Part shown: one piece after another, positions 4,002 to 63,300 of the stretch
Position numbering within the stretch: the stretch's first letter is position 1
Layout: every line of letters begins with the position of its first letter
Assembly (NCBI GenBank): GCA_017506865.1
Contig: JAFCMP010000550.1
Location: 124,001-188,000 of the forward strand
DNA length: 64,000 nucleotides
Direction: 5' to 3'
From: Tribonema minus
Lineage: Eukaryota > Sar > Xanthophyceae > Tribonematales > Tribonemataceae
The notes under the pieces: generated by a model
What the model saw: only the letters and a program-made list of their open reading frames with translations
What the model was told of the DNA's origin: nothing
The model's database searches: none
Made by a program: the position numbers and the translations under genes

Positions 4002-7000
4002 CCCGCCGCCTCCGCATCGTCGCTCGCAGCATCCGCGCCGCCGCCGCCGCCGCCGCTGCCGCCGCTCGGCAGCGCCTTGGTGTCCATGTCACCGAACGCG
4101 GCTGCCGTGTACGCGTTCTGCTCCGACACGACGCCCGCCTGCAGGATCTTGCGCACCGTGTCGCCGCGGCGCCCCTCGCCCAGGTTCTGGTGGAAGACCC
4201 ACGCGACCTCGTCCAGCTCGCGCCGCCGCGCCTTGCTCTCGCCGACGGTCACCTGAAGGGGGGGTGGGGGGGGGGGGAGGGAGGGGCACGGGGGGGGGGG
4301 GGGGGGGGGGGGAGATCAATGGGAGGGGGGGCGGTGGGATCAGTGGGGGGGTAGGGGGATGGGGGGGGGGGGGGGGATGAGTGGGGGCTGTCGCAGGCCG
4401 CAGGTGAGAATGAGGGTTCCAAAACTTGTGACAGACGCGCAGTTGCACACTCCACGCGCAAGTATGCTGGCAATGTATGCAGGTCGTAACTTCAACAGTG
4501 CGCCGCGCCACTTGCTGGGCATCGCTGCACTCCCCTCCAGTCCATCGCTAGCGGGGTCGCGTTCGGCGGCATGCATGTGTGTGCACACACTCGTGCTGCT
4601 GCGCAGCGAGGCCGCCAGAACATCAGGCCATCTGGGCAGATACCGGCTGCGATTCATCGGATTCTGTACACTTGTACATGTGCCTTGGCGGCGTCCATGA
4701 CCCTCTCTGTTGCCAGAACATGAGAGACCACCCGAGGGCGCCATTCATCTTACGCTGGTGCCGTACATCTTTACACTATACAGACATGCCTCAGCAGCGT
4801 CTCTCCGTCGCCGGAAGATCAGAGCACTAGAGGGCGCACTGCATCTAACCCTCTGCCTTACATGTATGATACATGCATACAAGTGTTTCTGTCCCCCAAA
4901 CATGAACACCTACATACATGGGTATGTACTTTTATTAATTTCGCTTCGCAAGGGGCGCGAAAAGCCCTCTCTCTGGATGTGCACTCAATGCAACATTCCT
5001 TCTGGGTATGTACCACACACACACATGTGCATACATGTACACACATCTTGTCAGGCTTGCAGCCTGCGGTGAGCCGTGACCTCGCTCATCAAGGAGGCGA
5101 TGCTTTACTTAGTTATATAGCCTTTCTCTCTAGCGTCAGCGCCTGGCGCCCAGTGACTCCCTCTGCTTATCTCTATGATATCGGGGTTCACGTAGATAGC
5201 CACAATCTCCAGTTCAGGGCCCATCATGGTGACCTTGGCCTGCATGAAAACTTTGAGATGGAGTCTGCGTGGAGCTGGGTGGCCCTTAGAAGGGTCTGTC
5301 TGTGGGGGGAGAGTCTTGCAGCTTTGTTTGGTATCCCTGCTAGTGTGTGGGGGACAGTCGCTTGCGGATGCTTTGTTGGGGGTGATATGGGAGGCCCGGT
5401 GAACCACTGTCCCGCTCATCAAGGAGGCGATGCTTTGCTTAGTTATATAGCCTTTCTTTCTAGCGTCAGCGCCTGGCGCCCAGTGACTCCCTCTGCTTAT
5501 CTTTATGATATCAGGGTTCACGTAGATAGCCACAATCTCCAGCTCAGGGCCCATTATGGTGACCTTGGCCTGCATGAAAACTTTGAGATGGAGTCTGCGT
5601 GGAGCTGGGTGGCCCTAAGACGGGTCTGTCTGTGGGGGGAGAGTCTTGTAGCTTTGTTTGGTATCCCTGCTAGTATGTGGGGGACAGTCGCTTGCGGGTG
5701 CTTTGTTGGGGGTGATGTGTGGGGGGGGGTGTGGCGTGCAAGCTTTGCATGCTACATCCAAGAGTGAGAACAAGGCGACACACCTACAACATGGCATTTC
5801 CACAGCCACAACTGGAACATAATAAAAGTACACCCACGGTTTTTTTTTGCCCCCCCCGGGCCAGCTCGCCAACATCGAAAGGTGTGGCAGCGCCATGAAG
5901 TGGAGGGTGGGGGCTGCTTGTCTGGCGCGCCTAGCATGTTTCACCAGCCATGGTGCATCTGGCGCGCCGCAGCAGCACCTGCCACATTTCAGCCGCGCAT
6001 TTGGAGCCCCTTATCACACAGCACCAGCAGGCCAGAGGAGCATTACGTTCGAGCTCGCGGCATCGGCAAGGACATGGAAAGCTTTGCAGTTCGCCTCTCA
6101 AGCAGCACGAGCAGCTACTTCCCTCCCCTCACGCCACCCAAGGATACTATCTTCGGGCCTTTTGGCACCGTTGATTGTCATACCAATTACTCTTCGAGCT
6201 GATCCGTGGCTGAAGCAGAAGGAGTGGGGCTCATGCAGCTGTGCGCAGCTGCTGCAGACTACGCCTGCTCGGCCGTCGCCAGGGCTCGTGCCTTTTCCGC
6301 CATGTGCCGACCAACCTGCGCTTGAAGTTCGCCACCAAGGACACTATCCCGGGGCTTCACGGCACCCTGGATTGTTGACCCTACTCCTATGGAGTGTTGT
6401 TCGTGTGGCGGCAAACCGCAGCATCTGCTGGCACCTCTGGCCCCGACTGCTGCATCGGCGACTGTGGACATCGGACCTGCGCTGCCTCCACCAGCACTTG
6501 CCGCCGTACACCGCATTTGCTGCCCCAGCACCTCACATCTGGACACTATCTTGGGACCTAGCGGTACCCTTGATTGTTGTTACACACACTCTTTCAGAGT
6601 CTTGTCCGTGGGGAGGGTCAGCGATGCGGCGACGGCGCAGGCAGGTGGCGGCTTCGCCTGCTTGGTGGCCTACGCCGACGCAGCGACCGAGTGTCAAGCC
6701 TGCTGCCTGCTGCGCCAAGATCATCAACGCGAACACCAACACCTGCAACCACACCGTCGAAGACCGGAGCCTATCCGCCGCCGTCCCTGCCGCCGGCGAT
6801 GGCGCACGCCTTCAACCCACAACCGACACAAAGACACTATCTTGGGGCCTCGCGGCACCCTTGATTGTTAGTCATACAACTCTGCGGAGTGTTGTCCAAG
6901 GCATGTGGTTAGAGAGCGGCGCCTGTGCGCGGCGACGGGGCAGGCGGCGGCAGCTGCTTGGCGGGAGCGGCGCGGAGGAGCAGGAGCAGGAGCAGCAGGA

Positions 7001-10000
7001 GGAAGGAGTTCGCAGCAGGGGTTCCAGTGTGCGGCCGGGGACACCGGGGGGGGTAACACTAGCAAATAGAAGGGCGGGTTTTAGTAGATATGCTTGCTGG
7101 AGTGACAGCATCAGCCTTTGCAGCACCAGTGCCTGGCACTTAGTGATCCATGACCATTGTCCTCAGTTCTGGGCGCTGCTACCAGTAGCCCAGGCCTGCA
7201 CAAAGCTGTTCACGGTTAGGACCATTTTGGCAGAGACACGGGAGGCCTCAAAGTGAGTCTGGTCGTGTAGAGGCAGTAGCTTAGGCACTTTGGTGCAGCA
7301 TGATAGTGGGGACCGATCGGGGTTTGGGTGGGGTTTGTTGGGGTTGGGTTGGACTCTTCGTAGCAACAGCATTGATACCCTTAGCACCAGTGCCTGGTGC
7401 CCAGTGATCATTTTGCCTAGAGGCGTGATTCAGACGTGTCAGCATGGTCCTCAGTTCTGGGCGCTGTCAAAGGCGACCCAGGCCTGCATAAATCTTTTTC
7501 AAGACGGGACAAGTGTGCCTCACGGCTGGGCAACCCTAAGTAGGGTTTGGTTGTGGGGTGTTGGTGGTAGTGTGAAGAGGGGGAAGCCTGTTTGCGGTTG
7601 AGTCTCTCTTCGGAGAAGGAATGTTGCATTGAGTGCACATCCAAAGAGAGGGCTTTTCGCGCCCCTTGCGAAGCGAAATTAATAAAAGTTTCGCGCCCTG
7701 AGCGAGAATTAATAAAAAGTACACCCACATACTTCTACTTTGAAGTACATGGGTATGTACCATACACACACGTGTATACATACCTTGGCAGCGTCAATCA
7801 GCCTCTCCGTTGCGGCCGTCCAGCTGAGCGTCCGCCTTTGCTCGGGAGTCAGGGGGGCGGGGTCCTTGGTGAGGGCCCGGTACACGTTCGCTGAGAACTC
7901 CTTCTCGCCGTCGAACGGCAGACAGTTGGGGAACTGCGCAGACGGGACGTGCACAGAGAGATGAGAGTTTGTGAGGGCCGTGTAATGTGTTGGATGTACC
8001 TGTTGGAGAAGCGAATGCCTGTTGCATGTTCCTTTCAAAAAAACTGCGCGTCTGGCACGCGGTCAGCAGGCACTGGCATTCTGGGACAGGCGACCTGCGT
8101 TGCTGAGCACTGCTAAGCATGCGCGTGTACTGATACCGACCGATGGCATTCATGAGATACTCACGGGTCCCATCATGCCCCCCCTGAGTCACTCATGAGT
8201 CCGAACATGGATCCCCTTGCGTTGCGTGGCAGAAGGCTGGCATGAATCGCATATGACGCCTCTGGCGCTGCAGCAAATAGCGTTCCCCAGGAAATCAAAA
8301 CGGAGACCCTCCCCCCCCCTTTCCACTGTCCCCTGTACCACTAGGGCGCGCAGCAACAACGGGGGGGGGCACGCATGGCGGCGGCGCTCACCTGGTAGAA
8401 GAACTCGTTCGAGGAGTGGCGCGCGCACACGACCCACTTGCCCATGGCCAGCGCCTCTGCGATGGTCGTGCACAGAACCTCGCTGACGCTTGGGTTGACA
8501 AAGAGGCGGTACTGCGAGAGCGTCGCGTGGTCCGTGGCGGGGTGGAACGTCACTTGAAGTTTCAGCGCCTCGGCGCGCTCGCGGATCTGGTCCAGCTCCG
8601 GCCCGGTGCCGTAGACATCCACGGGGAAGCACGAGCCTTGCATTGCACGCGCGCGAGGGGGGTGGGGGGGGGGGGTCAGGAAGAGGAAAGGTTGGGAAGG
8701 GGGGGGGGGGGGGGGGGGCGACGCGGGCTTCATAGGCTCGCCGTCGCCACAGCGCACAGTCAACAGCACGAATGCTGCGTCGACGAGGCGGAATCTACCA
8801 CAAGTGAATGGCACGTTACCTGCAGACAGTGCATTAGGTGCGGGCATAGTGAGGGCCCTACGTCAGTGCCCACCGCGCCAATCATGACGTCCGGGTGACC
8901 ATTTGCAAGCGGCGGCGGCCGGCGCCTTTCTAACCATGCTCAGATGCTACAGCCGTGAAAACAATGGGGAAACACAATGGCCACAAATGCCACTAATGAG
9001 AGGTGATCGCTGGCTGCCTGTCAGCCCTGTCTGCTGGCTGGCACGTGCGGCAGTGACCGGCCAGTTGCTAATCCGCTTTGCATCACATTTTTGCCGCAAG
9101 TCAGATCATCCCCTGCAGAGCCGCCTGCTCTGCTAGGCGATATGCTTGCTGTGATGTAGTCGTGATAGGGTATGTTGGATGTACCTGAAAACAGAATGCT
9201 TCAAAGGAAGTGCACTCAACGCGAACCACCCTGAACATCATGTCAACGGCTGATCCTGGCATGTGCCCGCTCGAGGGGTGTACACGAATACCGACAAGAG
9301 TCACTAGCTGACTCCATTGCGCGTCCTCCAAGCTCTCCTGCCACAGCAATGTCCTTGGAGTGTGAGTCAGTGCTAGTAAACCTCTCTTACGGACTCCGTC
9401 ACCGCAAATTCCTCCTAGCCACAGCAAATTCACGGCGTGCACCCCTTTCTGCCAAAGTTTCTGGACATTGTAGGGTCCAGCACTCACTTACTGAGGGCTT
9501 GAGGACTCATTGAAAGCCCAGCACTGAGTTATTCTGAGCTGGCATGCACGAGCTCCCACAGCCTACCATGGCCCTTCTCTCACAAGGTACAAAAATTCAA
9601 TCACTGAGGACATGAGGATTCGTAACACTCATTCACTGAGTCATTCTGAATTGGCATGCATGAGCTGCTACAGCCTGTTGTATAGCCCGTTTCCCTTGAT
9701 GTTTAAGACTTGCTAATTGAGGACTTGAGGACTCTTTATACCCACTCACCGAGTCGCTCTGAGCTGGCATGCATCAGCTCCCACAGCCTGTCGTAGCCCT
9801 TCTCCCACAGCATCTTTCCCAGCATGTAGCCGCCAGCCTCAAAGCCCTTCCCTGATTTGATATCATCGGCCGCCGCATCGCCCACCTTTGCATGCAGCGC
9901 GAGAATAGACGCGCAGAGGTGCATGAGTACATGGGTGAACTGTGCACTGTCATCATTGTACTATGCAACATGGTCGCCGTCATTGCGTGTTTCAATGTCC

Positions 10001-13000
10001 TCTGCCTGCATCTCCTGACCTTCGCACAGCGCGCAGAAAAGAATGCAAGTACATGTGTGTACTGTGATTGTACAGTGATTGGACTTCGAGCGTTGGCGGC
10101 GTGTAATGTGTCCATCGCGCTATGAGGCAAGCTTCATCGTCCATGTCAGCGACAAATAAGGCAGAGCTCATGTTCATGAATGAACGCATAGGTATATCGG
10201 GACACTGCACGTCCAACCTGCTTTAACATTTACATCAAGGATGGAAAGGCTGACTGTTGAAGTGAGCGCTATTTTGGTGGAACTTGAAGTTGTGCACTTA
10301 ACGTTGCGGTTTGTTCGAAATCTGTACGAGAGTAGTTGGAATTCTTTTGCATGACTGACTCATTAATCCTGAGCTGGAATGGCCAGGCTTGCTTTGCTGT
10401 GCTTTTGTGATGTCACTTCCAGTCCTACACACAAGCACGTGTGCCACTTTGGTTGACTTCTTTTTGTCATGTCACAAGCTCAGTATCCTCTGCACGGTGA
10501 TCTTCGTGATGTTAACATTGCAACTGACAGCGCGACTGAAGTCTCATCACCACTGTGTCTTCTTCGAGAGCGTGTCTGATGCTCTGCACGACAGCGAGCA
10601 CAGACAGCCACAATGAAGTCCTGAGCGCTGCCCCCCCTCCCCCCCCCCTTCTCCTTGCGCCCCACAAACTCACAGTCACACAGGCGCTTTTTTGCCTGAC
10701 AGCTGAGCATCACCAGGTGACTGCAAATCAGTCAGGGGGTATGTACGTATGGATCACCTGCAGGAAGCGCTCCCGCACGCCGTGCACGTTGCACACCGTC
10801 TCCTTGTCCTCGGCAAACTTCTGGAGCGTCGCCGAGAGCTTGATGATCTTGTCGCAGTACGCGCGCGCCATGAGCTTGTTGAACCCGCGCACCCACGGGC
10901 CCTTGATGTTGGCGCCTGCGCGCGCGCATGCGCACGCGTGCGGGTGGAGTGCTCATGAGACGTATCACGGATGCACATGAGGCACATCAGGAATTCATGC
11001 TTCTCGGGTGTTTTTCTGTGCGTCTCAAGGTACACTGCGGTATAGTGTACTGTACGTCTCAAGTTCTGTGGTACAGAGCACTCCAGAAGCATGTGCGTCA
11101 AGTATACATATCGCGTGGTCAAGCACAGCGGCATGCAAGAAGCATGCGCGCAGCTGTGGCACGACCCTGCGCAGCGAAGATACTTGGAAGTTGAAGTTGG
11201 TTGAGCTCATGCGGTCCTCCTACGCCGCGCAGGGCACACTCATGGCGACTTCACTGTCCGGCGCGTCACTCACCATAAAACTACACATCGATGCACTTCA
11301 ACAGCAGCGCTCACCCCAGTTCACGTGGTCCTGCGCGGCATTGTAGCGCACTCATGGCAACTTCACTTTCCGGCGTGTCATCTCTTTTGCCGAAAACTAC
11401 ACGGAACAATGCAAAAGATTGTAGAGCTGCCTACATACTCTCACACACATCAACGCCAGCGCTCACCCCAGTTCACGCGGTCCTGCGCGGCGTAGTACAA
11501 GTAGTTCGTGTGTATCGCGCCGATGACGTGCTTGAACTTCTTGGACCGCGCAGCGTACAGTCATCGCAACTTCACTTTCCGGCGCGTCGCCCATTCGAAT
11601 AACTATCCATACACATCATCAGCACCAGCGCTCACCCCAGTTCACGCCATCCTGCGCGGCGTAGAAGCGCACTTATGGCAACTTCACTTGCCGGCGTGTC
11701 ATCCCTGTTGCCGAAAACTACACGGAAACGATTCAAAAGATCATAGAGCTACACACTCCCACACACATCAACGCCAGCAGCGCTCACCCCAGTTCACACG
11801 GTCTTCGCGGCGTATTACACATAGTCACGTAGTACATGTAGTTCGTGTGAATTACGCCGACGACGTGCTTGAACTTCTTGAACTGCGCAGCGCACAGTCT
11901 TCGCAACTTCACTTTCCGGCACGTCACCCCCTTGAAGAACTACACACTCATCAACAGCAGCGCTCACCCCAGTTCACGCGGTCCTGCGCGGCGTAGTACA
12001 CGTAGTTGGTGTGAATCACGCCGATGACGTGCTTGAACTTCTGGGGACCGCGCAGCGCACAGACATGGCAACTTCACTTTCCGGCACGTCACCCCCGTGA
12101 AGAACTACACGCTCATCAACAGCAGCGCTCACCCCAGTTCACGCGGTCCTGCGCGGCGTAGTACACGTAGTTCGTGTGTATCACGCCGACAACGTGCTTG
12201 AACTTCTTGGACCGCGCAGCGTACAGTCATGGCAACTTCACTTTCCGGCACGCCACCCCCTTGAACAACTACACACTCATCAACAGCAGCGCTCACCCCA
12301 GTTCACGCGGTCCTGCGCGGCGTAGTACACGTAGTTGGTGTGAATTACGCCGACGACATGCTTGAACTTCTTGGACCAGTTCGTGCCCGTCGCGCGGTAC
12401 CAGTTGATGTGCTCCGGCTCCTCCATGATGCACACGTCCGCCTCCTCGTCGGGTATGAGACGCGTGATGTCGCCCATGGGGAAGATGCACCCCATCTTCT
12501 CCAGGTAGCGCCCCTCGTACCACACGATGTGCAGCGCGTCCGCCTCCGCCGCCATGTTGGCGTCGCGCAGCCAGCTGCGGGAGGGGCGGGGGGGCGGGAA
12601 GGGGAGGGGGGGCGGGGGAGAAGGGGGAAGGGGGAATGCTCTGCGTGAGGCACTGCATCCGGAAACAGGTGGAGTTCTGATGCAGCCGCACCGCAGCGCG
12701 CTCGACACTCTATGGCATCGTTCATCATAAGTGCGCCGAGTGCGGTGAATGTCCGGAGACCCCTCAGCGCTGCTGTAGATGTGCACCTCACCGCCAGCGA
12801 CGCACAGCAGTCACTTGCGACGGAGGTACGCAGTCCCTGGCACGTAGCTCGTAGCCCCCAGCAGACGATGAGCGCGACGCGCTTGCGCCGCTGCTCCCCC
12901 CTCTTGCGCTACAAGGTGCACCTCAGCGCTCAGCAGCATTCCTTTATTATCGGTCCGATGCAAGCTACGGCATGGCCGCTCCCCTGAACACCTGCACAAT

Positions 13001-16285: not shown

Positions 16286-16380
<95 letters not shown>

Positions 16381-19300
16381 GCACTCATCTTCTCTGAGTG
16401 AGTAAAGGATCGCTCGTGTGCTGGTGCATTTATAATGGCCTAGCACCGTACCCATGCAGGTGACTGAGGACATGCTGCTGTTGCTGCTGCTGCTGCCGCC
16501 GCTGCTGCTGCCGCTGCTGCTGCTGCTGCCGCTGCTGCTGCTGCTGCCGTCGCCGCTGCTGCTGCACGGCGCGCAGGACGGCATGATCGCAGGCACGCAG
16601 CTGGTCGCGGACTGCCTGGAGGCCTGTGCAGCAGTGCTCGGCGCATCACACGTAGCGCGCGCGCTCTTCTGCCAGAGCCGCTGCATCGGCGTGCTGCATC
16701 AGCTGGTGGACATTCGCTGGCTGGCGCACGCGGCGCGGGGGGCGGCGGCGGCGGGGGGGCAGCGGGGGGAGGGGGCAGGGGCGGAGGCGCCGCCGCTCGT
16801 GGGGCCTGTGCAGGTATGTATGCCGCGCTGCATGCTGAGGGTGACAATGTCAGATGTAGAGGTGACTTGGTCGCGTACGTGTTACCAGGTGTCATGTTGT
16901 AGAGCAGTGTATTCAGCCACACTGAACTAATGATTCTCTCAACTGCACAGCGCGATTAAAGCCAGGACATGGAAGTAACGACTGAAGCTTCTACATGCTG
17001 TAAGGCCTGTCACCTGGCTGGCGGGACTGGCTCACAGGCACACTCTCCTGTATTTCAACAAGGTGTTGTAGGAGCAGTATCAATTCCATACTCAAGTCTT
17101 TCCAGGCCAGCAGGGGGGGCTGTCTGCACCTTGCACGACGTGCCAACTCCGAACCGCTCACAGTTCAACTGCAGACAGACAGAACCTCGTGTCTTCTCTC
17201 CTGGTGGCGTATGGATGACGCGCGTCGCTCACGCTCGCCCCCCGCTGAGCAGTGCGACATCATGCTGCGCGCGCTGGACCTGCTGCGCCTGCTCGCCGCT
17301 GCCGACTCCACCACCGCCGCCACGGCAGCAGCCGCGGCAGCAGCGGCGGCAGCAGCAGCAGCGGACGGCGCCGGTGACAGGGCTCAGCGGCAGCTGGCGC
17401 TGGGCGGCGCGGCGCGGGGGCTGCTGGCGGAGCTGCTGGCGCATGTGGCGATAAGCCGCGCGGAGCCGTACTGCCGCGCGCCGCCGCGCGTGCGTGCAGC
17501 GGCGCTCGCTGCGCTGACGGAGATCGTTTACGGGCACGCGGAGAACCAGGTGCGGCGTCGCGTGCAGCACGCTCTGAGTGCGTGCGGTGCGCGTGTGTAC
17601 TTGTATCAAATTCCACTTGGGGCTGCAGGAGTGTGTACTGCTGTGCCTTGAGAGGTTGGGGGGTAGGGTCCGGGCGCGAGTGCGTGCGGTGCGCGTGTGT
17701 ACTTGTATCAAATTCCACTTGGGGCTGCAGGAGTGTGTACTGCTGTGCCTTGAGAGGTTGGGGGGTAGGGTCCGGGCGCTCGACTGCGTGCGCCGCGACA
17801 CGCGCAGCTGCCGTTGAAGTATCACGGCATGTCAACACCGTGAGTTGCATGAATTGCATGCAGCGGTCATTGGAAGGTGTGAGCCAGAGTGCTGATGTGA
17901 CGTGGCCAGGGGCGCTGCCGCGTGATTGCAACTTGAACTTCATAACTTGATGTATGCAGCATACATATCCTGTCCTACTTCGAAGTAAGACGCGCCCCGG
18001 GGGTGCCAAACTTCACTTTCAACTTCCACTACCACCATCGCGCGCTCGCAGCGGCGCGTGCTGGAGATGCTGGTGCAGGACGTGGGCTACGACTCGGCGC
18101 TGCTGCCGACGCTGCTCGTGCAGGGGGCGATGGATTGGCAGGGGGAGCGGGCGTGGGAGGAGCGCCTGGCGCACTGCAAAGCCTTCCAGGTGCGCATCGC
18201 TCAGCAACATATCACATGTAACCGCTGGCAACTGCTGGTCGGCTGTACCTAGGAGTTCTAGAAACGCTTTGCATAGGGAGGGTCCGAAGCATCAAGGAGG
18301 AGTCAGTATGCGTATGCATGTATGTACGTATGCTCGCCTGTCTCATCTCAGTTGGCAGCAATTGCGCAATGCACGTCACACTTCACCGTTTAAGAAGCAT
18401 AACATATCATGTCCAGCAACGTGGCTTTCATTATGCTCCTCAAGCGTATGCAGGCGCGCGTCGTCAGCAGTGCTCAGCAGCGCGGACTACAATTCCGACA
18501 GCGAGCGCCTGTCAGCTCGCGGCGAACGAGCTGATGCAGTTATTGGCTGGCACATCAATAATGTGCTGCAGTACAGCAGCTGACTAAACAAGTACAACGG
18601 GCACAGTGATCTTGCGCATGCGCACCTAACCCTAACCCTAACTCATCAGCCCCGCTTTCGCCGAGCGCGAGCCGCACACTGCTCATGGCGTGTTCAAGGG
18701 CACACGCACGTCTTGTAACACCACCCAGACCAATTCATGAAATTCATGAACGTCCACGCCGTGCAGTACATCGGCGGCGCTGGCTTTGCGCAGGCGTATG
18801 CCCCGCGCCTCTGCGTACTACCTACATACCGTACCGCCTGCCTCCCCCCGCTGCAGGCGTGCTACACGGGTAACCCCCTGGCGTGCGCGCAGCTCTTCAG
18901 CCACGTCATCGCGCCGCCGCCGCCGCCGCTGGATCTGGACGTCGACCTCGAGGACTGGGTCCCGCCGGTCCAGCCGGGGTCCGTGCTGCTCGCCGCCACG
19001 GCCTCCGCCGCGGCGGCGGCGGCAGCGGAGCCGCTGGCGGAGGGGCTGCAGCTGACGGTCATGCTGCTGCTCCACGGCCGCGATGCGGCGGCGCAGGAGA
19101 TCGCGCTGCGCGTGGCGCTGCCGCCGCATCCGGCGGAGCCGCCGCGGCCGCTGATGGCGTGCGTGCTGCTGTGGCTGGAGGACGCCGCGGCGGCGTGGGC
19201 GGCGGCGGCGGCGGCGGAAGCGGCGGGGGCGGGCGCTCCCGCCGCGACTGCAGCAGCAGCAGCAGCCGTCGGCAGTGGCGATGATCACGGTAGCGCCGGC

Positions 19301-45701: not shown

Positions 45702-48700
45702 GGCAGCAGCAGCAGCAGCAGCAGCAATGACAGCAGCAGCACCAGCTCACAGAGCGGCAGAAGCGAGCGTGGCGGGCGAAGCGGATGACTCTGTGCGCTA
45801 CCTTGACTGTGACTATTTGGTGGTCGGCGCGGGGGCAGCGGGGTGCGTGCTGGCGTCGCGCCTGGTGCGGCGCGGCATGCGGGTGGTGCTGGTGGAGGAG
45901 GGGCCTCAGGACGCATACAGGTGACAGCGCTCAGCAGCAACTTAAGTTGATGAAGTTGAAGTAGCCAGAGTGTTTACAAGCATACGGTATTATCAACAGT
46001 CCAGGGGCCGCAGGACGCGTACAGGTGACAGCGCTCAGCAGCAACTTCACACGAAGTGTACATGATCGAATTGAAGTTGTGTACTGGAGCGCAAGCATTT
46101 TTGATGAATCAAAGGTGTGCAGGCGGTGCATTTGCGTACAGGTGACAGACAGCGCTCAACAGCGACTTTTTTACGATGAAATTGCAGTTTTCCAGCGCGT
46201 AAGGCATAGTTGGGAATCAAAAGTGCGCAGGCAGTGCATCTGTGTACAGGTGACAGCGCTCCGCAGCAGCTTCACACGAACTGTGCATGGTCGAATTGAA
46301 GTTGTATATTATGTCCTGGACCGCATGGGCTGAGCGCACGATAAATCGGGCAATAACTAAATCTACGGAGGGGCCAGCGGTTCGGCGCTGGCCGGCGAGG
46401 GCCGCGGCACTTGCAACAGTGCGATGCGGCGGTAAGCGCTGACGTCGCCATCAGGGGCAATGACTGCGTTCCAATTGAAGTTGTATTTTGGAGCGTAAGC
46501 ATATTTCGATAAATCAGAGGTGTGCACGGCGTGCACGTGCGCACAGGCGACAGCGCTCCACACCACCAGAGTGTGCAGCATCACTGGATGAGTTGGCAGT
46601 AGAGTATTTAGTGGAAGTGCGCAGGCGGTGCACGCATGACTGGAGCAACTAAAGCCAGTTGACAGGATTCGCAAAAACTTGAGCAGCGAGTGACTTGCAC
46701 GTTCAGGTGACAGCGCTGCGCAGCGGCGGACCGCCCCCCTGCATCTGGATATTGCAGGCGGAATAACTGCATCATAATCTCAATTATATTGTGGTGTACA
46801 TCAGAAGATGACTTCCGACGCACTGCTGCATGAAGCTGGCATGACGCTGACAACCTCACTGATGCACACCGCGCCGGCAGGTCTCCCACCGTGCAAAAGT
46901 CTTTCACGTGTCAAAGCTCAATAACGAAAGCTCAGCACCAATGCTTCTTCAGCAACACACTGCCACGCACACGCAAGCACACCGCCCTCGTCAGCGCTGC
47001 GCGAAGCTCACAACCTCACTGCCGCGCACCTGCGCACGCGCGCTCTGGCAGGTCCCCCACCGTACAAAACCCCAACGACTGGGCGTCCACGTCGCGCGGC
47101 TGGCCGCTGTCAACGCTCGTAACGACCGCGCCGCAGAAGCACCTTGCAGGGCGCCACATACCGGTGTGGGTGGGGCGCGGCTGCGGCGGGGGCACGCTGG
47201 TCAACGCCGCGCTGTATCAGCGGGGGCGAAGGTGAGCGGTGCACTGGCGGTTGCCGGGGGGGGGGGGGGGCGTGTTGTGTGCGAGCACAGCGAAGCTCAT
47301 GCGTGTACTTCGGTGGAGTGTACATGTGGAGACTGGCACTGATGATGTAGAGACTTTATGAAAAACGAATCAAAATATCGTAGTTATCATACACGGACTT
47401 GTGCTAGCGGGGGCACGCTGGTCGATGCTGCGTTGTATCGCACAGGAGAGCAGTACAGCAAGTGCGCCATGCATGATGGCGGCGCAGGTTTTTTTTTTTA
47501 TGTGCATACTTGTAAAGTGTATGTCTACACACCCTCCTGAAGGGCACACGTAGAAGTGCCTCAACAAGTACGTGCACTTACTTATCTCTCATGCGAGGCA
47601 ACAGTTCTGGATTGACAAACCTTCTGCATGGTTGCTTGGGTGAGAGCGGTCAGGACATCGCAACAAAAGCTGCAAAGCACTGTTATCCTCTGCCTTTGTT
47701 GTACTGAAGAGACCTAGTATCTACTGTAGGTTTTGGGCTGCAGATGTGTGTGCACTGCGGCGGCAGTGCTCCACATAGCTGAGCTGCGCCGCTCGCCAAC
47801 GACCAACGTCTTTATCGCATTGCAGCACTCTCGCCCTCTGGCCGTCTCACGCGCACGTCCAACTGCGCATACATTGCATATAGACACGCTACTCCTGCAA
47901 TACAGTACTTTGAAGTGCATGCATAGCTGGGTCATCGATGTACTCACATATCTGGGTCATCTATGGCCCCGGCGCGTCATCCTCGCAGGGAGGACTACCT
48001 CTCCTGGCCTTGGGACATTGACTTTATCGAGGCGGGCTTCAAGTCCGTTGAGAACGAGCTGCGCGTGGAGATGCAGCACCCCGGAGAAGTCGGTCGCAGG
48101 CTCGTGGCGGCGGTTGCGCGCGCCACCGGGCTCGCGTGCGTGCCGCCACTCCACAGCAGCAGCGGCAGCAGCTCAAGTCGCGACGGCAGCGGTGCTGACG
48201 GCAGCAGTCGCAGCAGCGGCACCGGCGGCGGCAATGGCAGCAGCTCAGGCAGCGGCGGCACTGACAGCGGCGTCAGCAACGCCAACAGCGGCGCAGCGGG
48301 AGGCAGATCGGCTGATGTCAGCAGCGGCGGCAGCAGCGCCTCTGGCCTCAGCGCGGGCGCCGGCAGCGGCGGCAGCGGCGGCGGCGTCAGCGGCGGCGGC
48401 GCCAGCGGCGGCGATGACGACGAGGAGGCGGTGCCGTGGCTGGCGGACAGCGTGCGCAGCGCCATGCACCTCACGACGCGCTGCGGGCGGCGCCTGACGT
48501 CGTGGGAGGCGTTCGTGCGGCCGCTGCTGGCGATGCCCAACCTCACAGTGCTCAGCGGCCACGCCGTCACGCGCGTGCTGCTGGAGCGCGACACCAACGC
48601 CGGCGGCAGCGCTCACAGCAATGGCGGCGGCGGCGGCGGCGGCGGCGGCAGCGTGGAAGGCAGCGGCAGCGGCGGCGGCGGCGCTGGTGATCAGGGCAGC

Positions 48701-51700
48701 GGCGCCAGCGACGATGATGGTGGTAGTGCAGGCAGCGGCGGCGGCGGCGGCAGCGGCGGCGGCAGCAGCGGCGGTGCGGTGCCGCGCGCTGTCGGCGTTG
48801 AGGCAGTGATCATAGATGAGAGTGCCGGCAGCTCACGCAAGGCGCGCGCGCGGGGGCGGCGCGTGCAGCTGCGGCTGGCGCGGCCCGAGGCGGAGGTGAT
48901 GCTGTGCTGCGGGGCCGCGTTCACGCCCCAGGTGCGACGACTCATCGAGCATGCTTCGGGATCATGTTGAACATGGGCTGTGCTTTGCAGTAATCCGTGC
49001 ACAGCACTCTTGTGTAGCCACATGTATTTATTTACAATTGAGCGGCAAAAGATCTATGTACCTTAGATGTTGCCTGCAGTGGTCTCCGGTGCATGTGTTG
49101 CACATATATCAATGTGCATATAGTGAGAGTGCTTCATACTTCTGGTTGAAGCACAGCGCATTATCAAAAATAATGAATAAAATCGCAACAAGACAAAAAC
49201 GGACAACATTATTCAAATCTGAAAATATAACAAATAAAATTTAAACGCATTTTAACTGTCAAATTTTATGATCCCTGGCGCCCCAGCCCTCGCTCCTTTG
49301 CTCATGACTTTTGAATGCAAGCCGGTAAGGAGGGCTGGCTTTGGGCGTGTAGGACCGTTTGAACATGGATGCAGCTACTGGTGCACCAATACGTGTACAG
49401 TAGACAGTATCTGCACCGCATGATGTGGCGGAAAAGGGCACCATTAAATTCTACACAGCGGCATTGGATATCAATTGATAGCCTTCGATTCCGAGATTCC
49501 GCATAATAAGAGTTGCGGCAGCTATACTTCTTATCTTCTTCAAAAGTACTTTACATATATGTAGTGACCCCAATTTCCAACAACGACTTTTTTCAAAGAC
49601 ACCACCTGAAATTGTGTGTTTGATTTTTTCCCCTTTGAACTGGTTCTTTATCAAATTTGTGAATTATGGACAGACTAATACTTGCTTTGGATGCGGCAAA
49701 GCTTGGGTTGATGCTCATGTCAAGCATGCTAACAGAGTGTCTCAATGCTCTTGACGGTCACTCTGCGTAAATAACATCGCCAAGTAGCTGTACTTTTCAT
49801 TGATTCTCGCTCAGGGCGCGAGAAAGCCCAGATGATTGGCATCTAGCTGTACGGAATCTACATGTCGTATGACAGTCTGAAAGTGTCGTAACGACAACTA
49901 CTCAAAGGCCGCCGCCGCCAAATGGCATCTTGGGATCCTCCCCTACGTCCTCCTCCATGTGCCCCCCCCCCCCCCCACCTCTGTACTTTTTATTGATTCT
50001 CGTTCAGGGCGCGAAAAAGCCCAGATTAATGGCTTTTAATTTGAACCTTGCTGTTACTTGTGAGATCTTGCAGATGGAGTGGAGGGAGTTGAACTTTGAT
50101 GTTACGGCAGGGCTCTTCAATGTCCTGACACACATTGTAGTCTGCAGCTGATAATCCGCCGGCAGTACTGTGCCTTACATGCTGCACACCATGTGGACAG
50201 AGCCTGGACGTAAATTCACTTGCACGTGCACATGCACATGGAATAACGCATTACACTAGCACGAACAATCGTCGCCTTGACACCACACCCCGCAATACCG
50301 TCGAGCGCCATTTTGAGCTTACAGGTTGCAGTTGAATATTTGAACCCCTGTTTATTATTGCAGGTGCGCACGGTCCGCTATCTGCGTGTTAACTCTTCGT
50401 CATACCTCTGAGTCTCAACGCTCTTGTGTGCCTCCGTTCCTTCTCGCGAATGAATGTGCAGGTGCTGATGCTCAGCGGCATCGGCCCCCGCGACCACCTC
50501 GAATCGCTGGGGATCCCCGTAATTGTAGACGCGCCAGCCGTGGGCACGGGACTGCGCGATCACGTGCTGCTGCCAACTCTAAGTGCAGCATTGCTCGGTG
50601 GCAGCGGCAGCGGCGACGCGCGCGCCCCCGCTACGCACAGCGTGCAGGGACTGGCGGACTGGTCGCTGGACGGCAGCGGCAATGGCGCGCGCGTGCAGGT
50701 GTGTTTGTAGGTATGCATGGGGGGTATGCGAGCAACGGTGTCTCGGGCGTCTGAGGTATGTATGCCGTGTGTGCGCTCACGGCGACGGCGCGAGCATGCA
50801 GGTGTGTGTGTATGCATGGGGGGTATGCGAGCAGCGCTGTCTCATGCTTCTGAGGTATGCATGCCGTGTGTGCTCCCTGGTGTTGTCGTTACACAAGCGT
50901 ATGCATCCAGATCCCTGGCGCTTGCGCGCGTTTGCGATGACGGCACAATGATGTACATCGCCACAGTCTATGAGCCACAGCTACATTTGCTCACGCCCCT
51001 CAACTGTGTGCAGACGTTGCATTTGATTTTCCCATCGCTTCCATAGATGCCACTACCTCTCGCAGCACGTTCCAATCTCCTCACCGCCACTATTCGTGCA
51101 TCCCAACCGAACATGATCCACATGCCCTCGCCCCGCCTCAACCCCCCACCCCACCCCCTGCTCCTTGCCCCCAGGTAATGCTTGCTGACGGCGAAGGCCT
51201 GCCTAAGATGGCGCCGCTGCTGGCGGCGTGGACGGGGCCGCTGAGCCGCGGCGCCGGCAGCAGCGGCGCGCGCGCGGCGGCGGCGCTGCGCTGGCTCGTG
51301 GCCGCCGCGATCCGCGCGCTGCTGCTGCTGGTGCCGCCGCTGCGCGCGCTGCTGCGGCGCGCGACGTGCCTCAACCTCGCCGTCATGGCGCCCGCGTCGC
51401 GCGGCGCGGTGACGCTGCGCAGCGCCGACCCCGCCGACGCGCCGCTCGTCGACCCCGCGTACCTGAGCGACGCGCGCGACCGCGCGGCGCTGCGCGGCGC
51501 GTTCCTCGCGGCGCGTTCCGCGCGCGGCGTTGCGCACGATGACAAAGCATTCAGCGCTGGCAGTGGTGGTGGCCCCAAGGGGGCAGGCGCTAATAGCGCA
51601 AAGAAGGGGGCAGGCAGTGGCGGCGCCGGCGGCGTCGACCTGCTGCCGGGGCCGCTCTACCGTGGCGCCGCGGCGGACGCGGACTTTGCGCGCTGGTCGC

Positions 51701-57300: not shown

Positions 57301-60300
57301 CCTGGCGTGAATTTCATGAAATGGATGACGCGTACTGCCTGAGCTGCGTGCTGAACGACATAAGAGCATTGCTGCAGTCGTATCATCAGATTTAATGAAC
57401 ACCGAATTGACGTAACGTAAACTCATGAGTGCTGCAGCCGGTACAGACAGCAGCATTGTCCCTTGACTTGATTCAAAGAGATGAATGTAAACTCATGAGT
57501 GCTGCAGTGGTACAGACAGCAGCATCTTTATGAACTCGAATACGAAGCGGTGCACCCATGCGGTCATTCGGAGATGTGCGTATTTGAATGCTTGAACAGT
57601 GTGCTGATCGATGTGACTGCACGAGCATGAACATATGAGCAAATTGACAGTAATTCATGAGCCCTGCATATTTACACAAATAGGAGGCGTTTTGGGAATG
57701 TGAGCGCGCGCTGCATGTTCACGTTGATGGTCATGAGGCGTTTCGACCTCTTCCTGCCCGCATGTGCTCTTTGTACTGCCCACAAAATTCCGCATCGGTA
57801 ACATTCAAGTGCTCGTTACAGATGTGAACCACATGCTTATTTAAAAACGTGGCGAGAACTCCCACCCTCGTCATTCAAACTGGCAGGACACATTTCTTGT
57901 TTTGCTGCCACGTCAGCTGCTTGGCTTTTGTACCAGTACAGCTCATCGAGAAGCGTGGCCCAGCACTCGTTCAGTCATGCTCTTACTTTATCATCACGTC
58001 AGCAGGACGCACACTACTGCTGCCACGTGAGGCCATGTTGCTTGCTACTTCCCCTGCTTCCAAGGCTTTATCAGCCCTATGCTTTGCAGTGTGCACATGC
58101 AAACTCATCATCATGTAGCTTGTTCTCCATCACTTGTTGTCGGTAGGAAACGCGCTACTGCTGCCACGTGAGCTACATCACTTGCTGCTTCTACCTGGTT
58201 CATCTATGCTCCCAAGGGATGCAACCGCCCTTCATTTGAAGTGCGCGCATACATGCAAACTCATCATCATGCTGCTTTGTTTTCCATCACTTGGCGGCGG
58301 CAGGACACGCGCTACTGCTGGCACGTGAGCTCCATCACTTGCTGCCTCTCAATAGATTAAAATGGCTTAAAGGGATGCATTGGCCCTAGGGTGTGAAGCA
58401 CGCAGATGCAAACTCATCGTGCTGCTTTGTTATTCATCACTTCTCGTGGCCCAGGACACGCGCTACTGCTGCCACGTCAGCTGCGACGTCTGCTCGGACA
58501 GCCGCAGCTGCGCGCGCTTCCCCAAGAACCAGATCAGCAAGTGCTGCGGCGCGCACATCAAGGACAACGGACGCTCCTGCGAGACGGGGCAGGCCCCGTG
58601 CAACGTCAAGAAGAGCAGGTACGCAGCTCTATATTTACTGGCTGTTTAAATTGAAGTAAGATTTGAAGTTCAGGGTTCAGGACAACGGACGCTCCTGCGA
58701 GCAACGTCAAGAAGAGCAGGTACGCAGCTCTATATTTACTGGCTGTTAAAATTGAGTAAGATTTTAAGTTTGGGTTGAGGACAACGGACGCTCCTGCGAG
58801 GACGCTTCTGCGAGACGGGGCAGGCCCCTTGCAACCTCAAGAAGAGCAGGTGCGCAGTTCTACATTTACTGTTGCAGTTATGGTTGAAGTTAGGGTTGAA
58901 GTTCAGGGTTGAGGACAGCGGACGCTCCTGTGAGACGGGGCAGGCCCCGTGCAACGTCAAGAAGAGCAGGTACGCAGCTCCTACCATTTACTGGTTGAAG
59001 TCAGGGATGAAGCTAGGTTTGCGACATGAAGTTACATTTGAAGTTCAGGGTTCAGGACAGCGCGGACGTTCCTGTGAAGCATGATGGCACCCCCCTCCCG
59101 CGCTGACACTGTGTATGTCCCACCGCGCCGCGATGCCGCAACGGCCCTGGCACGGTGAAGCGCACCACCTCGATATATATGCACATACGTTTGTAAACAC
59201 ACATCAACATGCATATGCGTTGCGTCCAAAAGCACGATCGCACCCCCCTCCTGCGCTGACATCAACTGTCATTGTCATTCCCCACCGTGCAGGTGCTCAA
59301 GCAACGGCCCCAGCTCGGTGAAGCGCAACACCTGAATATGCATGCACATACATGAACACACATTCATAAACGCACATATGCGTTTCCTCCAAAAGCATGG
59401 CCGCACCCCCCTCCTTCGCTGACATTAAGTGTACTGTCCCGCCGCGCCGCGATGCTGCAGGTTCTCGGGCAACGGCCCCGGCACGGTGAAGCGCGACACG
59501 TCAATCAACATGCGCACATTCGTACAGGCGCATGTACTGGCTGCATCCGTCTCACGCGTTCACACTGCCTTTATCCATCATTGCTGCGGTGCCGCAGGTT
59601 CTCGGGCAACGGCCCCGGCACGGTGAAGCGCACCGCCTGAATTACATGCACATACATACACACTCATAAACACACATACACATATGCATTTCCTCCAAAA
59701 GCATGATCGCACCCCCTTCCTGCGCTGACATGAATTGACATTGTCGTTCTCCACCATGCAGGTTCTCAGGCAACGGCCCTGGCACCGTGAAACGCGACAC
59801 GTCCGTTGGCGTGTGGCCCGGCGGCGATCCCAAGGACGGCGTCAAGGCAAAGGAGAAGGAGCTGCACATGCACTTTGGACACCAGCTGCTCTTCGCCGAC
59901 GTGCGGGTGCGTGGCAGCGCTCAGTATTCAGCACCCGGCCCCGCTCTGTACGGGGGCGTTGTCAGCCTCACAAGCTCAAGTTGACCGCATCTGCATGCCA
60001 CGTACTTTGTATCTATTCTTGTTTCAAGGCGCAAGTGTAATGTACTTCTTGTCCATACCGATGTAATGCACTTCAAAAGTATCCAACCGCCACAATATGT
60101 AGACGCCATGCGGTGTTTGCCGATGGGTGGGTGAGGTCAGCAGTGCCCAGTGCTCAGCGCTAACCCCACACCCTAAGTAGTACTCTCCGTTCTCAGTTAA
60201 CTGGCCGTCGGCGCTGCTGCGGCTTTGTGCCTGGTGTTAGCTACGAGCAATGCGCATCGCTGCTGCTTCCTGGAGTCTTCACCAACTAATCATTGCGTTG

Positions 60301-63300
60301 CGTGCGCCTGCTCTCCCCCGTTTTTGTCCTGTCTCCACGCAGAACCTGGACTGGGACTACATTGCGTCGTTTCTGGATGGAAACCGCGCCGTCGAGCTTG
60401 TGATGGAGTTCAACTCCGACACGCCCTTCACCGCCAACCTCAAGTGAGTGTTTGACTGTATGTGTCTCTTGAGCCAGCTTATCTCTACACATCTGCATTG
60501 CGGTTGCGCATGTGAGTTTAGTGACACCCATACAAACACCAGGCTTGCGGGTTCGCGCAAGAGCTGCCGCTGAGTTTTCAGCTGATGCTTGAAGATGTCG
60601 GCTTTGACTTGAAAAATGCCGATGCACTTCCTTTTTGGAATGTGGTTTTTACAAGTGAGTATTTCTCAACCAAGAAAGCAACAAGAAAGAGCCGTCAGCA
60701 ACACTCAACACTCGTGCGAGAGGGACATCACACCGCTAATTATATGCGTCTCTATTCCATAAGCCCCTGCTGCCGCTGCATGCACCGCCTCGTCCCTACG
60801 TCGACCATCACAGCGTTCCCCTCGCCCGACCGCAAGCAGCATTACCTTGTTGTTGGCGGCACTGCTGTGTGCACACTGACAACGCGATGCGGCTGACGTT
60901 GTGCGCGCCCGAACGCGTTCAATAACTGCAGGGACGTCATCGGCGGCAAGTACGACACCGACCTCAAGGACTTTGGCCGCGCCGCCGCCAAGGACGGCAG
61001 GCGCATCACCGTGCGCCTGCTCCACGAGCTTAACGGTACGTATCGTTGGATAACAAAACACAAACACATACACTAGAAACTCATTCCAACAGTTTTCAAA
61101 TACAAGCGCCAAGGAAACGGCAGGCGCATCACCGTACGCCTGCTCCATGAGCTCAATGGTATGTATACTAAAATATGCCATCTGTACATATCTACTGGCG
61201 GATCATGTCAAGACTTTGTCTCACATCACCGTGCGCCTGCTGCACGAGCTTAACGGTACGTATCGTTGGATAATAATACAAAAACACAAACTTCGAAGTA
61301 CATCAAAATTTCGTTCCAAAAGTATTAAAAAAACAAACCTTCAGTTGTTTGTGGGGATACTTTTCAAACCAACAAGACACAATGCTGTTTCTTCTATCAT
61401 CACTTGTTTATAAGTAAATTTATATGTTATGTCACCTGCACATATCTACTGGTTGGCCACGTTGTGTTTTTTACCTCGCGTTCTGGTTTGACCCAATCGC
61501 GGCAGCAGCGACGGTTTCAGTGCTGATTCCCGGGAGTCAGCCGCAGGCGACTGGGTTAGGTTGAGTGTGCAACTGATGGCTGCTCGCTGCATCAGCACCT
61601 CGGTACGTTGACTTGACTTGTGTGTACACGGCTCGTGGCAGCTGATTGGTATGGATTACCTGTCTGCGTGCTGCGTATGCCTGCCCACAGGCGACTGGCG
61701 AGCTTGAACTACGGCTCACCTTGACACAAACCACCCGCTCTCCGCAAGCGCCACAGGCAGCAATTCTTATCTGGGTACTTTCAGCCCCCGCGTCGAACTC
61801 AGCAATCAAACACATGTACTCAGATGACGACAACAACCACTAATACACGGGCTCCACTTGCCTTACAGGCGACTGGTACCCGTGGGGTGCGTTCACGCCT
61901 GGGAACAGCCCGGAGAAGCTCGTGACGGCGTACAAGCACGCGGTCAGCCTGCTGCGCAGCACCGGCGCCAACTTCAAGTACCAGTTGAGCTACAACGCGC
62001 GCAACGCCGGCGGCAATTCGACGCCGCTGAAGGCCTTCTGGCCAGGCGACGAGTACGTGGATGAGGTACGGCTCAGCGGAAAATTAAGGAAACTCACAGT
62101 AAACTTACAGAAATTTCACAAGGGGTGCTCTATGCAGTCACGCGTTGCAGTGCAGTGCGTGCGCTCTTGTCGTTGTCGTGCTTGGAGCCTGTTTGTCCGG
62201 CACAATGGGCAGCGTGGGCACCAATTCAATTTTGCGGCGTAGGTCGCCACTGAGGTCCGCAAGTACGGCGCACTGTGCCCTCCTCGCTTCTGCCACGTTT
62301 CACCTGAACTGCCATTCTTTTCAGTATTTGCACAATGGTCATCCATCCATCAAGAGCCCCCTAGCAGAAGCCCACTGCGCGGGCGCCACGGCGTGCGTGT
62401 GCACCTGACCTGAGCGCTGCTGCACCCACGTGGCTGAGCGTTGTGGCAGTTTACATGACTGAGCAATGTTGCATTTGTGCGATGCCACTGACTGGTGTGC
62501 GTGGCACCATACAACAGGTGCCTGAGCGCTGGTGCACCCATGTGGCTGGACGTCGTGGCATCTACATATGAGAGGCTTCAAATCATGCACACAGATGCAA
62601 CGCGAGTGCACGCAGCCACGCCTCGAATGCTAAACGCACACAGAAGTCTTTTGACTACTGTGGACATGATGGCACTGTTTGACTCGTGGCCAATGACTGC
62701 AGCAGCGGCGACCACGGTCATTGGTGGAGGCACTTATGACTTATCACACCTTGTCACCTAGAGCTTTGCGGCCTTTTGATTCGATTCCATGACTGAGCAA
62801 TGCTGTGCCTGCGCAGTGCCATGGACAGGTGTGCGTGGCAGCATACAACACGTGCCTGAGCGCTGCTGCTCCCATGTAGCTGAGCGTTGCGGCAGTTACC
62901 ATGACCGAGCAATGCTGCATTTGTGTGGTGCAATCGACAGGTGTGCGTGGCAGCATACAACACGTGTGGAACGTCGTCCAACCCGCGCATGACTCTGTCC
63001 CTGACGGCCATCATGAACACGTGGTACAAGCAGGTGCGTGTCCGTTCTTTGAAGTTGCATGACTTTTTAATGCTTTGGGAATGTAACAGCACGTGTCGGC
63101 CCACTGATGCTTGTTGTATATTTTGGTGGTTGGAGGAACACAGGCGCATTGCTACTGACTGTGCACATGCACGGTACAATGTGTCACGAGTTTCCAGTGT
63201 CAGTGCAAGTTTGAGGTAAAGCAGCTGACACTCCATGCTCGGTAAGTATGTTGCTTCACGGAACCTCAAACACCGCAACCTTACATTGTTTGTTGGTCAA

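What the first reader, a model, noticed from the sequence alone, without database searches (positions are those of the whole stretch)
4655..62945. Introns carry tandem 'echo' copies of neighbouring exon edges with their splice sites
In at least five genes (DGDG synthase, p115, multicopper oxidase, GMC, GH26-like) introns contain 1-6 tandem, partly decayed copies of a unit that spans an exon-intron junction. Donor-edge units lie downstream of the true exon, acceptor-edge units upstream, always in the adjacent intron, with periods of about 100-200 bp. Exon 4 of the GH26-like gene is echoed on both sides. This suggests that introns grow by repeated duplication across splice junctions, leaving arrays of competing or decoy splice sites. 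I know of no standard repeat class with this behaviour, but whether it has been described cannot be checked here.
Basis: partly seen in the sequence, partly recalled or inferred. Interest (0 to 1): 0.88.

Follow-up and report, generated by a model that had tools for sequence, protein, structure and literature searches.

The report
Introns filled with duplicated exon edges
In this alga-like genome, short stretches of DNA that cross the border between coding and non-coding parts of genes have been copied side by side again and again, so many introns carry decaying copies of the neighbouring exon's edge, often with an intact splice site, which gives a directly visible way for introns to grow.

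Summary
At 12 places in five window genes, a unit spanning a splice junction is repeated head to tail in the adjacent intron. In the window plus 200 kb of randomly placed own-genome DNA, the last or first 60 bp of an exon has a copy in its own adjacent intron at 38 of 159 edges, against 0.14% of other introns, 0 of 159 reverse complements and 0 of 159 shuffles. A held-out 50-kb block gave 4 of 24. Around a phosphoglycerate kinase gene 7 of 12 edges are echoed. The copies decay like neutral intron, yet 40 of 44 donor copies keep GT. They are tandem duplications of existing junctions, not new introns from AGGT duplications (0 of 84) or dispersed repeats. Duplications also occur inside introns. 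One simulation fits a three-fold excess at junctions, but Tandem Repeats Finder shows little. Most likely: ordinary short tandem duplications, tolerated because splicing can keep using the exon-contiguous site. Splice-site usage is untested.

The parts
12297..12574 (-). DGDG synthase-like exon (...VIHTNYVYYAAQDRVNWG) ending at the donor GTGAGC judged true by eye (GT at 12296-12295)
   Evidence: another exon of the gene matches Glycos_transf_1 below the curated cut-off and exon 13278-14297 matches DGDG synthases. The gene HMM put the donor about 10 bp upstream, at 12306
11225..12377 (-). donor-edge echo array: true edge plus six copies of the donor motif, spaced 152-180 bp
9482..9809 (-). donor-edge echo array of exon 9750-9924, two copies, period about 113 bp
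23838..24376 (+). acceptor-edge echo array before the p115-like exon 24342-24572: four upstream copies, all CAG|GCGGA
30399..30800 (-). acceptor-edge echo of multicopper oxidase exon 30281-30464, period 202 bp
   Evidence: Cu-oxidase_2 match in this exon
32448..32731 (-). C-rich duplicated tract beside the acceptor of multicopper oxidase exon 32156-32446, period about 130 bp; repeats CAG|G, exon overlap not shown; low complexity, not among the BLAST-counted arrays, counted as interior by TRF
32977..33260 (-). donor-edge echo of multicopper oxidase exon 33254-33887, period 152 bp, only about 7 bp of exon in the unit
45913..46565 (+). donor-edge echo array of the GMC oxidoreductase exon ending at 45920: four copies, three with GT, one GC
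50677..50873 (+). donor-edge echo of the GMC exon ending about 50698, period 99 bp
   Evidence: GMC_oxred_C match in exon 51187-51750
57975..58482 (+). acceptor-edge echo array upstream of GH26-like exon 58455-58618: three copies
58561..59077 (+). donor-edge echo array downstream of the same exon 58455-58618: three copies with GT intact
59077..59803 (+). acceptor-edge echo array upstream of GH26-like exon 59762-59906: four copies
60986..61330 (+). donor-edge echo array (HELNG|GTACGT) of GH26-like exon 60932-61035: two copies
62402..62966 (+). acceptor-edge echo array before the GH26-like exon starting about 62941: two copies (the gene HMM missed this exon)
   Evidence: weak GH26 match, below the curated cut-off, in exon 61868-62065
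17576..17792 (+). purely intronic tandem duplication (102 bp, 97%), about 25 bp from an exon but not including it
24814..25080 (+). tandem duplication in non-coding DNA (132 bp, 100%): a recent event away from any junction

Best explanation
Short tandem duplications (unit mostly 95-200 bp) arise and persist in the genes of this eukaryotic, probably green-algal, genome. When a unit straddles a splice junction, the exon body stays attached to only one of the copied splice sites: the first donor or the last acceptor. If splicing keeps using that outermost pair, the mRNA does not change, the extra copy becomes intron, and it then decays neutrally. Introns thereby absorb exon edges and lengthen, and further duplication within an array makes up to six copies. 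SHOWN: head-to-tail copies of existing junctions; adjacency and orientation; neutral-like decay; no sign that decoy splice sites are purged; presence on several contigs; placement of the junction within the unit indistinguishable from random. INFERRED: which site the spliceosome uses (exon definition is the likely reason the decoys are harmless), and the source of the duplications (fill-in of staggered breaks or slippage). SUGGESTED BUT NOT SETTLED: straddling units are about three times more frequent per base than units inside introns.
For: Own-intron copies at 38 of 159 exon edges against 0.14% in other introns and 0 in three controls; 29 of 106 with the window left out; 4 of 24 in a held-out block. 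Copies only on the matching side: 0 of 110 on the other side of the exon. Around a phosphoglycerate kinase gene in random block B1, 7 of 12 tested edges are echoed, and 6 of the 8 edges that belong to exons with a Pfam match; the exon-2 echo carries TGCCTCAG plus about 90 bp of coding sequence at 95% identity. Neutral-like decay: mismatches between exon and echo are 111/1268, 108/1272 and 221/1271 at codon positions 1, 2, 3, about what is expected if the echo drifts freely and the exon changes mainly at synonymous sites; exon-side identity 86.9% (donor) and 84.6% (acceptor) against intron-side 79.4% and 74.0%, as expected when one or both branches drift. Decoys kept: GT in 40 of 44 donor copies, AG in 18 of 24 acceptor copies. 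Period lengths show no preference for multiples of 3 (26 of 83 HSPs). Exon penetration fits uniform placement (KS p = 0.22). Copies per 60-bp window: exon interior 30/452, junction-straddling 164/567, intergenic 205/4061, introns between strong exons 975/3370. 39 of 46 arrays touch an exon; a simulation with a 3-fold straddling rate gives 0.85, without preference 0.54-0.64.
Against: Tandem Repeats Finder, which reports only well-kept cores, finds 8 touching and 9 interior arrays where 5.0 touching are expected, a weak excess. The 60-bp window rate is the same inside introns of strong genes as across junctions (29% each), and array coverage showed no peak at the junction. Exon calls rest on a home-made gene HMM trained on the same sequence; only some genes have family support, and some echoes were called as exons. 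Block B2 shows none (0 of 17 edges). The overlapping-array simulation used one divergence depth and four hand-set settings. GT retention (40 of 44 against about 33 expected, p = 0.014, copies not independent) hints that donor copies may not be wholly neutral. No RNA, relative or population data.
Confidence: 0.78

Rival explanations
1. Fully junction-blind tandem duplication: no preference for junctions; crossing units are simply as tolerated as interior ones, and the junction arrays catch the eye.
For: Equal 60-bp window rates inside introns and across junctions; no coverage peak at the junction; uniform exon penetration; recent duplications away from junctions exist; the TRF count shows only a weak excess, 8 of 17 against 5.0 expected.
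Against: 39 of 46 BLAST arrays touch an exon (26 of 29 and 17 of 20 with stricter exon cut-offs; 41 of 49 with BLAST's dust filter off and block B5 added), against 37-42% in single-array simulations and 54-64% when several overlapping arrays per intron are simulated.
Confidence: 0.35
2. The duplicate splice sites are maintained for a function, such as spare or regulatory donors, alternative splicing or U1 binding.
For: GT kept in 40 of 44 donor copies, against about 33 expected from exon-side identity (p = 0.014); several arrays keep every donor.
Against: Acceptor AG shows no excess (18 of 24, p = 0.82); the coding part of echoes decays at neutral-like rates; echo donors score lower than true ones on average (4.87 vs 5.61, n = 41, p = 0.04), although 25 of 41 score at least as high.
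Confidence: 0.12
3. Introns created by tandem duplication of an exonic AGGT segment (Rogers-type intron gain), with the echoes as leftovers.
For: Copies are tandem and contain AG|GT-like junctions.
Against: Such introns must match at zero offset (5' exon end to intron end, intron start to 3' exon start): 0 of 84 introns reach 70% over 30 bp. Copied units already contain intron sequence.
Confidence: 0.03
4. Mobile or dispersed repeats (introner-like elements, satellites) inserted in introns.
For: The genome has dispersed elements, e.g. the 330-bp dimer family.
Against: Echoes match the neighbouring exon and almost nothing else in the 264 kb tested: 0.14% of other-block introns, 5 of 2070 non-adjacent introns in the same block. 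Not tested genome-wide.
Confidence: 0.02
5. Assembly artefact or chance similarity.
For: Collapsed or expanded repeats are common assembly faults.
Against: Most copies differ from the exon copy by 10-35%, the pattern recurs on several contigs, and the shuffle controls are at 0.
Confidence: 0.02

Closest known systems
Junction-crossing tandem duplication in a potato RNA-dependent RNA polymerase gene (PMC4974935; abstract and passages seen)
   Same: A tandem duplication crosses an existing intron-exon boundary and copies its splicing signals.
   Different: One recent event that created a new, used intron; here copies occur at about a quarter of the exon edges sampled, are often multi-copy, mostly decayed, and appear to be absorbed into the existing intron.
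[quoted passage not shown] passages seen; Rogers 1989 and Zhuo 2007 seen only in a reference list)
   Same: Tandem duplication changes exon-intron structure and duplicates splice motifs.
   Different: There the duplicated exon segment becomes the intron; here 0 of 84 introns show that signature and pre-existing junctions are copied.
Internal tandem repeats at exon-intron boundaries of human genes in segmental duplications (PMC2812944; passages seen)
   Same: Tandem repeats at exon-intron boundaries altering gene structure.
   Different: There the repeats vary between recent paralogues and form novel introns in a limited gene set; here the arrays are mostly old, occur in unrelated genes and seem to lengthen existing introns.
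Small tandem duplication by fill-in at DNA break termini (PMC8355091; abstract seen)
   Same: A known source of small tandem duplications.
   Different: Shown in the abstract for induced DNA breaks; no link to splice junctions; offered here only as a possible source.
Long introns of core-Reinhardtinia green algae (PMC8226300; passages seen)
   Same: Green-algal introns conspicuously long for compact genomes, with the selective advantage called unknown.
   Different: The passages seen do not describe exon-edge duplication; whether those species have it was not tested.

Membership tests
Tandem (head-to-tail) duplication of an existing splice junction | Direct copies, adjacent, containing both exon and intron sequence of one junction | tested here: met
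   68 junction-crossing copies at 38 junctions; 0 of 159 in reverse complement
Tandem (head-to-tail) duplication of an existing splice junction | mRNA unchanged because the exon-contiguous site is used | not testable with these tools
   No RNA data; inferred from conserved proteins such as phosphoglycerate kinase
Rogers-type intron gain by AGGT duplication | Zero-offset similarity between donor-side and acceptor-side flanks of the intron | tested here: not met
   0 of 84 introns at 70% or more over 30 bp, either side
Introner elements | Similar sequences shared by many unrelated introns | tested here: not met
   0.14% of 19,222 edge/other-block-intron pairs; 5 of 2070 non-adjacent introns; 264 kb only
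Tandem exon duplication | Copies hold the whole exon with both splice sites | tested here: not met
   Window arrays read by eye show one edge each; edge copies only on their own side, 0 of 110 on the other. Not searched for systematically: a few predicted exons in the random blocks, e.g. B1 32345-32583, lie wholly inside arrays
Functional alternative or spare splice sites | Splice motifs in copies conserved beyond neutral expectation | tested here: inconclusive
   GT 40 of 44 (p = 0.014, copies not independent), AG 18 of 24 (p = 0.82)
Functional alternative or spare splice sites | Copies used in transcripts | not testable with these tools
   No RNA data
Classical minisatellite/satellite | Head-to-tail array | tested here: met
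Classical minisatellite/satellite | Unit not tied to the neighbouring exon | tested here: not met
   39 of 46 BLAST arrays in confident introns include an exon edge; by TRF 8 of 17

The most novel reading that the evidence does not exclude
Splice junctions (or exonic DNA next to them) are a true hot spot for short tandem duplication in this lineage, several times the rate of intron interiors and intergenic DNA. Introns there are then built largely from fossil copies of their own exons' edges: an ongoing intron-growth engine that leaves the spliceosome choosing one of up to seven equivalent donors, with the donor copies possibly kept by selection.
Probability: 0.3. Interest if true: 0.87.

Novelty: new variant of a known kind. 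Interest (0 to 1): 0.7.

Why it matters
How introns get long is usually answered with transposons (my general knowledge). Here a good part of the recognisable intron sequence is the gene's own exon edges, copied in place. That makes intron growth readable like a fossil record: the exon gives the ancestral sequence, so each copy can be dated. It also sets up natural experiments on splice-site choice, because many introns carry several near-identical donors or acceptors and presumably only one is right. In genome annotation such echoes look like exons, and the gene HMM here did call some as exons. [quoted passage not shown] whether those algae show the same pattern can be checked directly.

Tried and rejected
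Rejected: Rogers-type intron creation (0 of 84); dispersed repeat or introner; outward, edge-first growth not shown (29 vs 22 pairs); chance. Changed my mind twice: one search showed array coverage flat across the junction with no peak and suggested a junction-blind process; one search then showed 37 of 46 arrays touching exons (39 with a 4-bp limit) against 17.2 expected; single-array simulations supported a strong preference; modelling overlapping arrays cut it to about 3-fold; TRF alone shows little. Led nowhere: naming the organism (protein search gave only distant hits, none); whole-genome family searches (of the genome search only the DNA search was ever answered). Donor-versus-acceptor difference (27 of 93 vs 15 of 90 edges, p = 0.054) left open. 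My first exon-edge test used too strict a complexity filter (48 of 195 edges; own 13 of 48, codon-shuffled exon 1 of 48, other controls 0) and was replaced. My first exon score was wrongly computed and replaced. Literature: ten searches of the held library listed no paper that I recognised as describing genome-wide exon-edge echoes; I opened seven papers, none in full, and most subscription papers are not held, so this is not proof of absence. Also seen in passages but not used as comparisons: PMC7617258 and PMC5966456.


Full report
WHAT WAS CHECKED. The window (64 kb, 57.5% G+C) lies in a 158-Mb, 554-contig genome. That it is a green alga is my inference from gene content and base composition; no tool named it. 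Codon-bias segmentation and a 13-state gene HMM trained on the window and 200 kb of randomly placed own-genome stretches gave exon models. Pfam supports, among ten window exons scanned, Cu-oxidase_2 and GMC_oxred_C above the curated cut-off and a glycosyltransferase and GH26 below it; six of the ten matched nothing. The DGDG exon 13278-14297 also matches proteins named digalactosyldiacylglycerol synthase.

THE ECHOES ARE THERE. Reading with translations in the sense strand of each gene and listing motif positions shows 12 arrays that copy an exon edge in five genes, plus one C-rich tract beside an acceptor (32448-32731) whose overlap with the exon is not shown. In the DGDG gene the sequence ...VIHTNYVYYAAQDRVNWG with its donor GGGGTGAGCG is followed by six further copies of the donor motif, spaced 152-180 bp. 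In the GH26-like gene one exon (58455-58618) has acceptor-edge copies upstream and donor-edge copies downstream. In these arrays donor copies lie downstream and acceptor copies upstream, in the adjacent intron.

CHANCE AND GENERALITY. For 195 splice edges I took the exon-only last or first 60 bp; 159 passed length and complexity filters. A copy (28 bits or more) was found in the own adjacent intron at 38 of 159 (window 9 of 53, B1 13 of 32, B2 0 of 17, B3 4 of 16, B4 12 of 41), against 0.14% of 19,222 pairings with introns of other blocks, 0 of 159 for the reverse complement of the own intron, 0 of 159 after dinucleotide shuffling and 0 of 159 with codon-shuffled exons (at 20 bits the figures are 49, 4.6%, 5, 4 and 15). 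Without the window it is 29 of 106. A further random 50-kb block, not used in training, gave 4 of 24 with 0 reverse complement and 1 of 4680 others. Copies were absent from the intron on the other side of the same exon (0 of 110) and rare in non-adjacent introns of the same block (5 of 2070). Block B1 turned out to hold a phosphoglycerate kinase gene: five exons match the Pfam family at E = 2.8e-19 to 8.8e-10. Of the 12 testable edges between 36,144 and 45,579 of that block, seven are echoed; of the eight that belong to exons with a Pfam match, six. Exon 2 starts TGCCTCAG|GACGGACCTGAGGACAAG; an echo 194 bp upstream reads TGCCTCAG|GACAGTCCTGAGGACAAG, keeps about 90 bp of coding sequence at 95% identity, then turns into unrelated intron. 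The two printed alignments of that exon to solved phosphoglycerate kinases are without gaps.

WHAT KIND OF EVENT. Units are direct copies, with smallest periods of 94-202 bp in 49 of 66 array clusters (median of all 66: 174). Among HSPs with period up to 330 bp, lengths divisible by three are not preferred (26 of 83). The copied unit already contains both exon and intron. The signature of introns born from an AGGT duplication is absent (0 of 84 introns). Where the junction falls within the unit is indistinguishable from random (KS p = 0.22 against a uniform simulation). Farther copies are not clearly more decayed (29 vs 22 pairs), which suits expansion within arrays rather than stepwise growth from the edge.

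FATE OF THE COPIES. Mismatches between exon and echo are 8.8%, 8.5% and 17.4% at codon positions 1, 2 and 3 (111/1268, 108/1272, 221/1271). If the echo drifts freely and the true exon changes mainly at synonymous sites, position 3 should be up to about twice positions 1 and 2, as seen; if the echo were also coding, positions 1 and 2 should be far lower. The intron side of the junction, where both copies drift, is less similar (79.4% donor, 74.0% acceptor) than the exon side (86.9%, 84.6%). Splice dinucleotides in the copies are not purged: GT in 40 of 44 donor copies and AG in 18 of 24 acceptor copies. The GT figure is somewhat above the neutral expectation (p = 0.014), but copies within an array are not independent, and only copies whose alignment crosses the junction by 10 bp on each side were counted; echo donors score slightly lower than true donors overall (n = 41, p = 0.04; 25 of 41 score at least as high).

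IS THE JUNCTION SPECIAL? The rate of copies per 60-bp window is 6.6% in exon interiors (30 of 452), 28.9% across junctions (164 of 567), 5.0% in intergenic DNA (205 of 4061) and 28.9% in introns between strong exons (975 of 3370). By that measure the junction is no more affected than the intron, and exons are protected. By event, however, 39 of 46 arrays in confident introns include an exon edge (26 of 29 and 17 of 20 with stricter exon cut-offs), and 41 of 49 with BLAST's dust filter off and block B5 added. A geometric null predicts 17.2 of 46, single-array simulations 37-42%, and simulations with several overlapping arrays per intron 54-64%; a three-fold higher rate for straddling units gives 85% touching, 0.67 arrays per intron and 30% of edges touched, close to the observed 85%, 0.57 (46 in 81 introns) and 27% (43 of 162 edges); a six-fold rate overshoots at 95% (four hand-set settings, one divergence depth). 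Against this, TRF alone gives 8 touching and 9 interior arrays where 5.0 touching are expected; at least four of those nine are cores of arrays that reach an exon by BLAST. I conclude that a modest preference is likely but unproven. Two of the youngest duplications seen in the window (24814-25080, 100%; 17576-17792, 97%) lie away from junctions, which keeps open the possibility that new events are junction-blind and that retention makes the difference.

MECHANISM. Best reading: ordinary short tandem duplication plus tolerance. A donor-straddling duplication leaves the first donor attached to the exon; an acceptor-straddling one leaves the last acceptor attached. If the outermost pair is used, the protein is unchanged and the intron is longer. 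Array-bearing introns have median 1226 bp against 488 bp (38 and 43 introns), although longer introns also offer more room. Choice of the outermost pair would follow from exon definition, since an echo has only one exon edge; this is inference. The source of the duplications is unknown; small tandem duplications from fill-in at DNA breaks are known (PMC8355091, abstract).

AGAINST WHAT IS KNOWN. The nearest published case found is a potato gene in which one tandem duplication crossed an intron-exon boundary and made a new intron (PMC4974935, abstract and passages). Intron gain by duplicated proto-splice sites (PMC2891723, passages) and human tandem repeats at exon-intron boundaries (PMC2812944, passages) are related but differ in outcome and scale. 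I found no report of the genome-wide pattern in ten searches (listed in Tried and rejected), which does not prove there is none. I file it as a new variant of a known kind: known mutational event, unusual pervasiveness and consequence.

LIMITS. Exon models are computational; only some genes have family support; one organism, 314 kb examined in all including the window (the exon-edge counts use 264 kb); 'genome-wide' here means five randomly placed 50-kb blocks on five contigs, one of which (B2) shows no echoes at the edges tested; no transcript, relative or population data; the whole-genome family searches that would have given an independent exon sample did not complete.

Noticed in passing
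4928-7689: 76-bp inverted terminal repeats (98.7%) flank a 2.8-kb element inside the stretch predicted as DGDG intron; it contains the 330-bp dimer 5067-5731, which gave 44 matches in the genome including its own, 43 of them full length at 99-100%.
   Followed up: partly
2413-2462, 7689-7728, 40144-40326, 49784-50038: Further sequences related to those element ends (up to 100% over 34 bp; 40144-40326 and 49790-49972 are 95% inverted copies), suggesting more members of one terminal-inverted-repeat family.
   Followed up: no
3049-3079: About five TTAGGG-like units (84% matches), an interstitial telomere-type repeat.
   Followed up: no
16273-16379, 16473-16565, 45593-45746, 57070-57166: Long CAG/CTG-type tracts in or near predicted coding segments, reading as leucine runs in some frames.
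   Followed up: no
window 11968-12040 and 30622-30666; also blocks B1 and B4 (L009-L013, L024-L028): The gene HMM called some echo copies as short exons, a warning for automatic annotation of this genome.
   Followed up: partly
block B2 (L014-L018, C112:1696133-1746132): Block with no echoes at the 17 edges tested and few intron arrays; it may be transposon-rich.
   Followed up: no
L021:2108-3945 (block B3 22108-23945): Tandem array with a 322-bp period at 97% identity, outside the exon-edge pattern.
   Followed up: no
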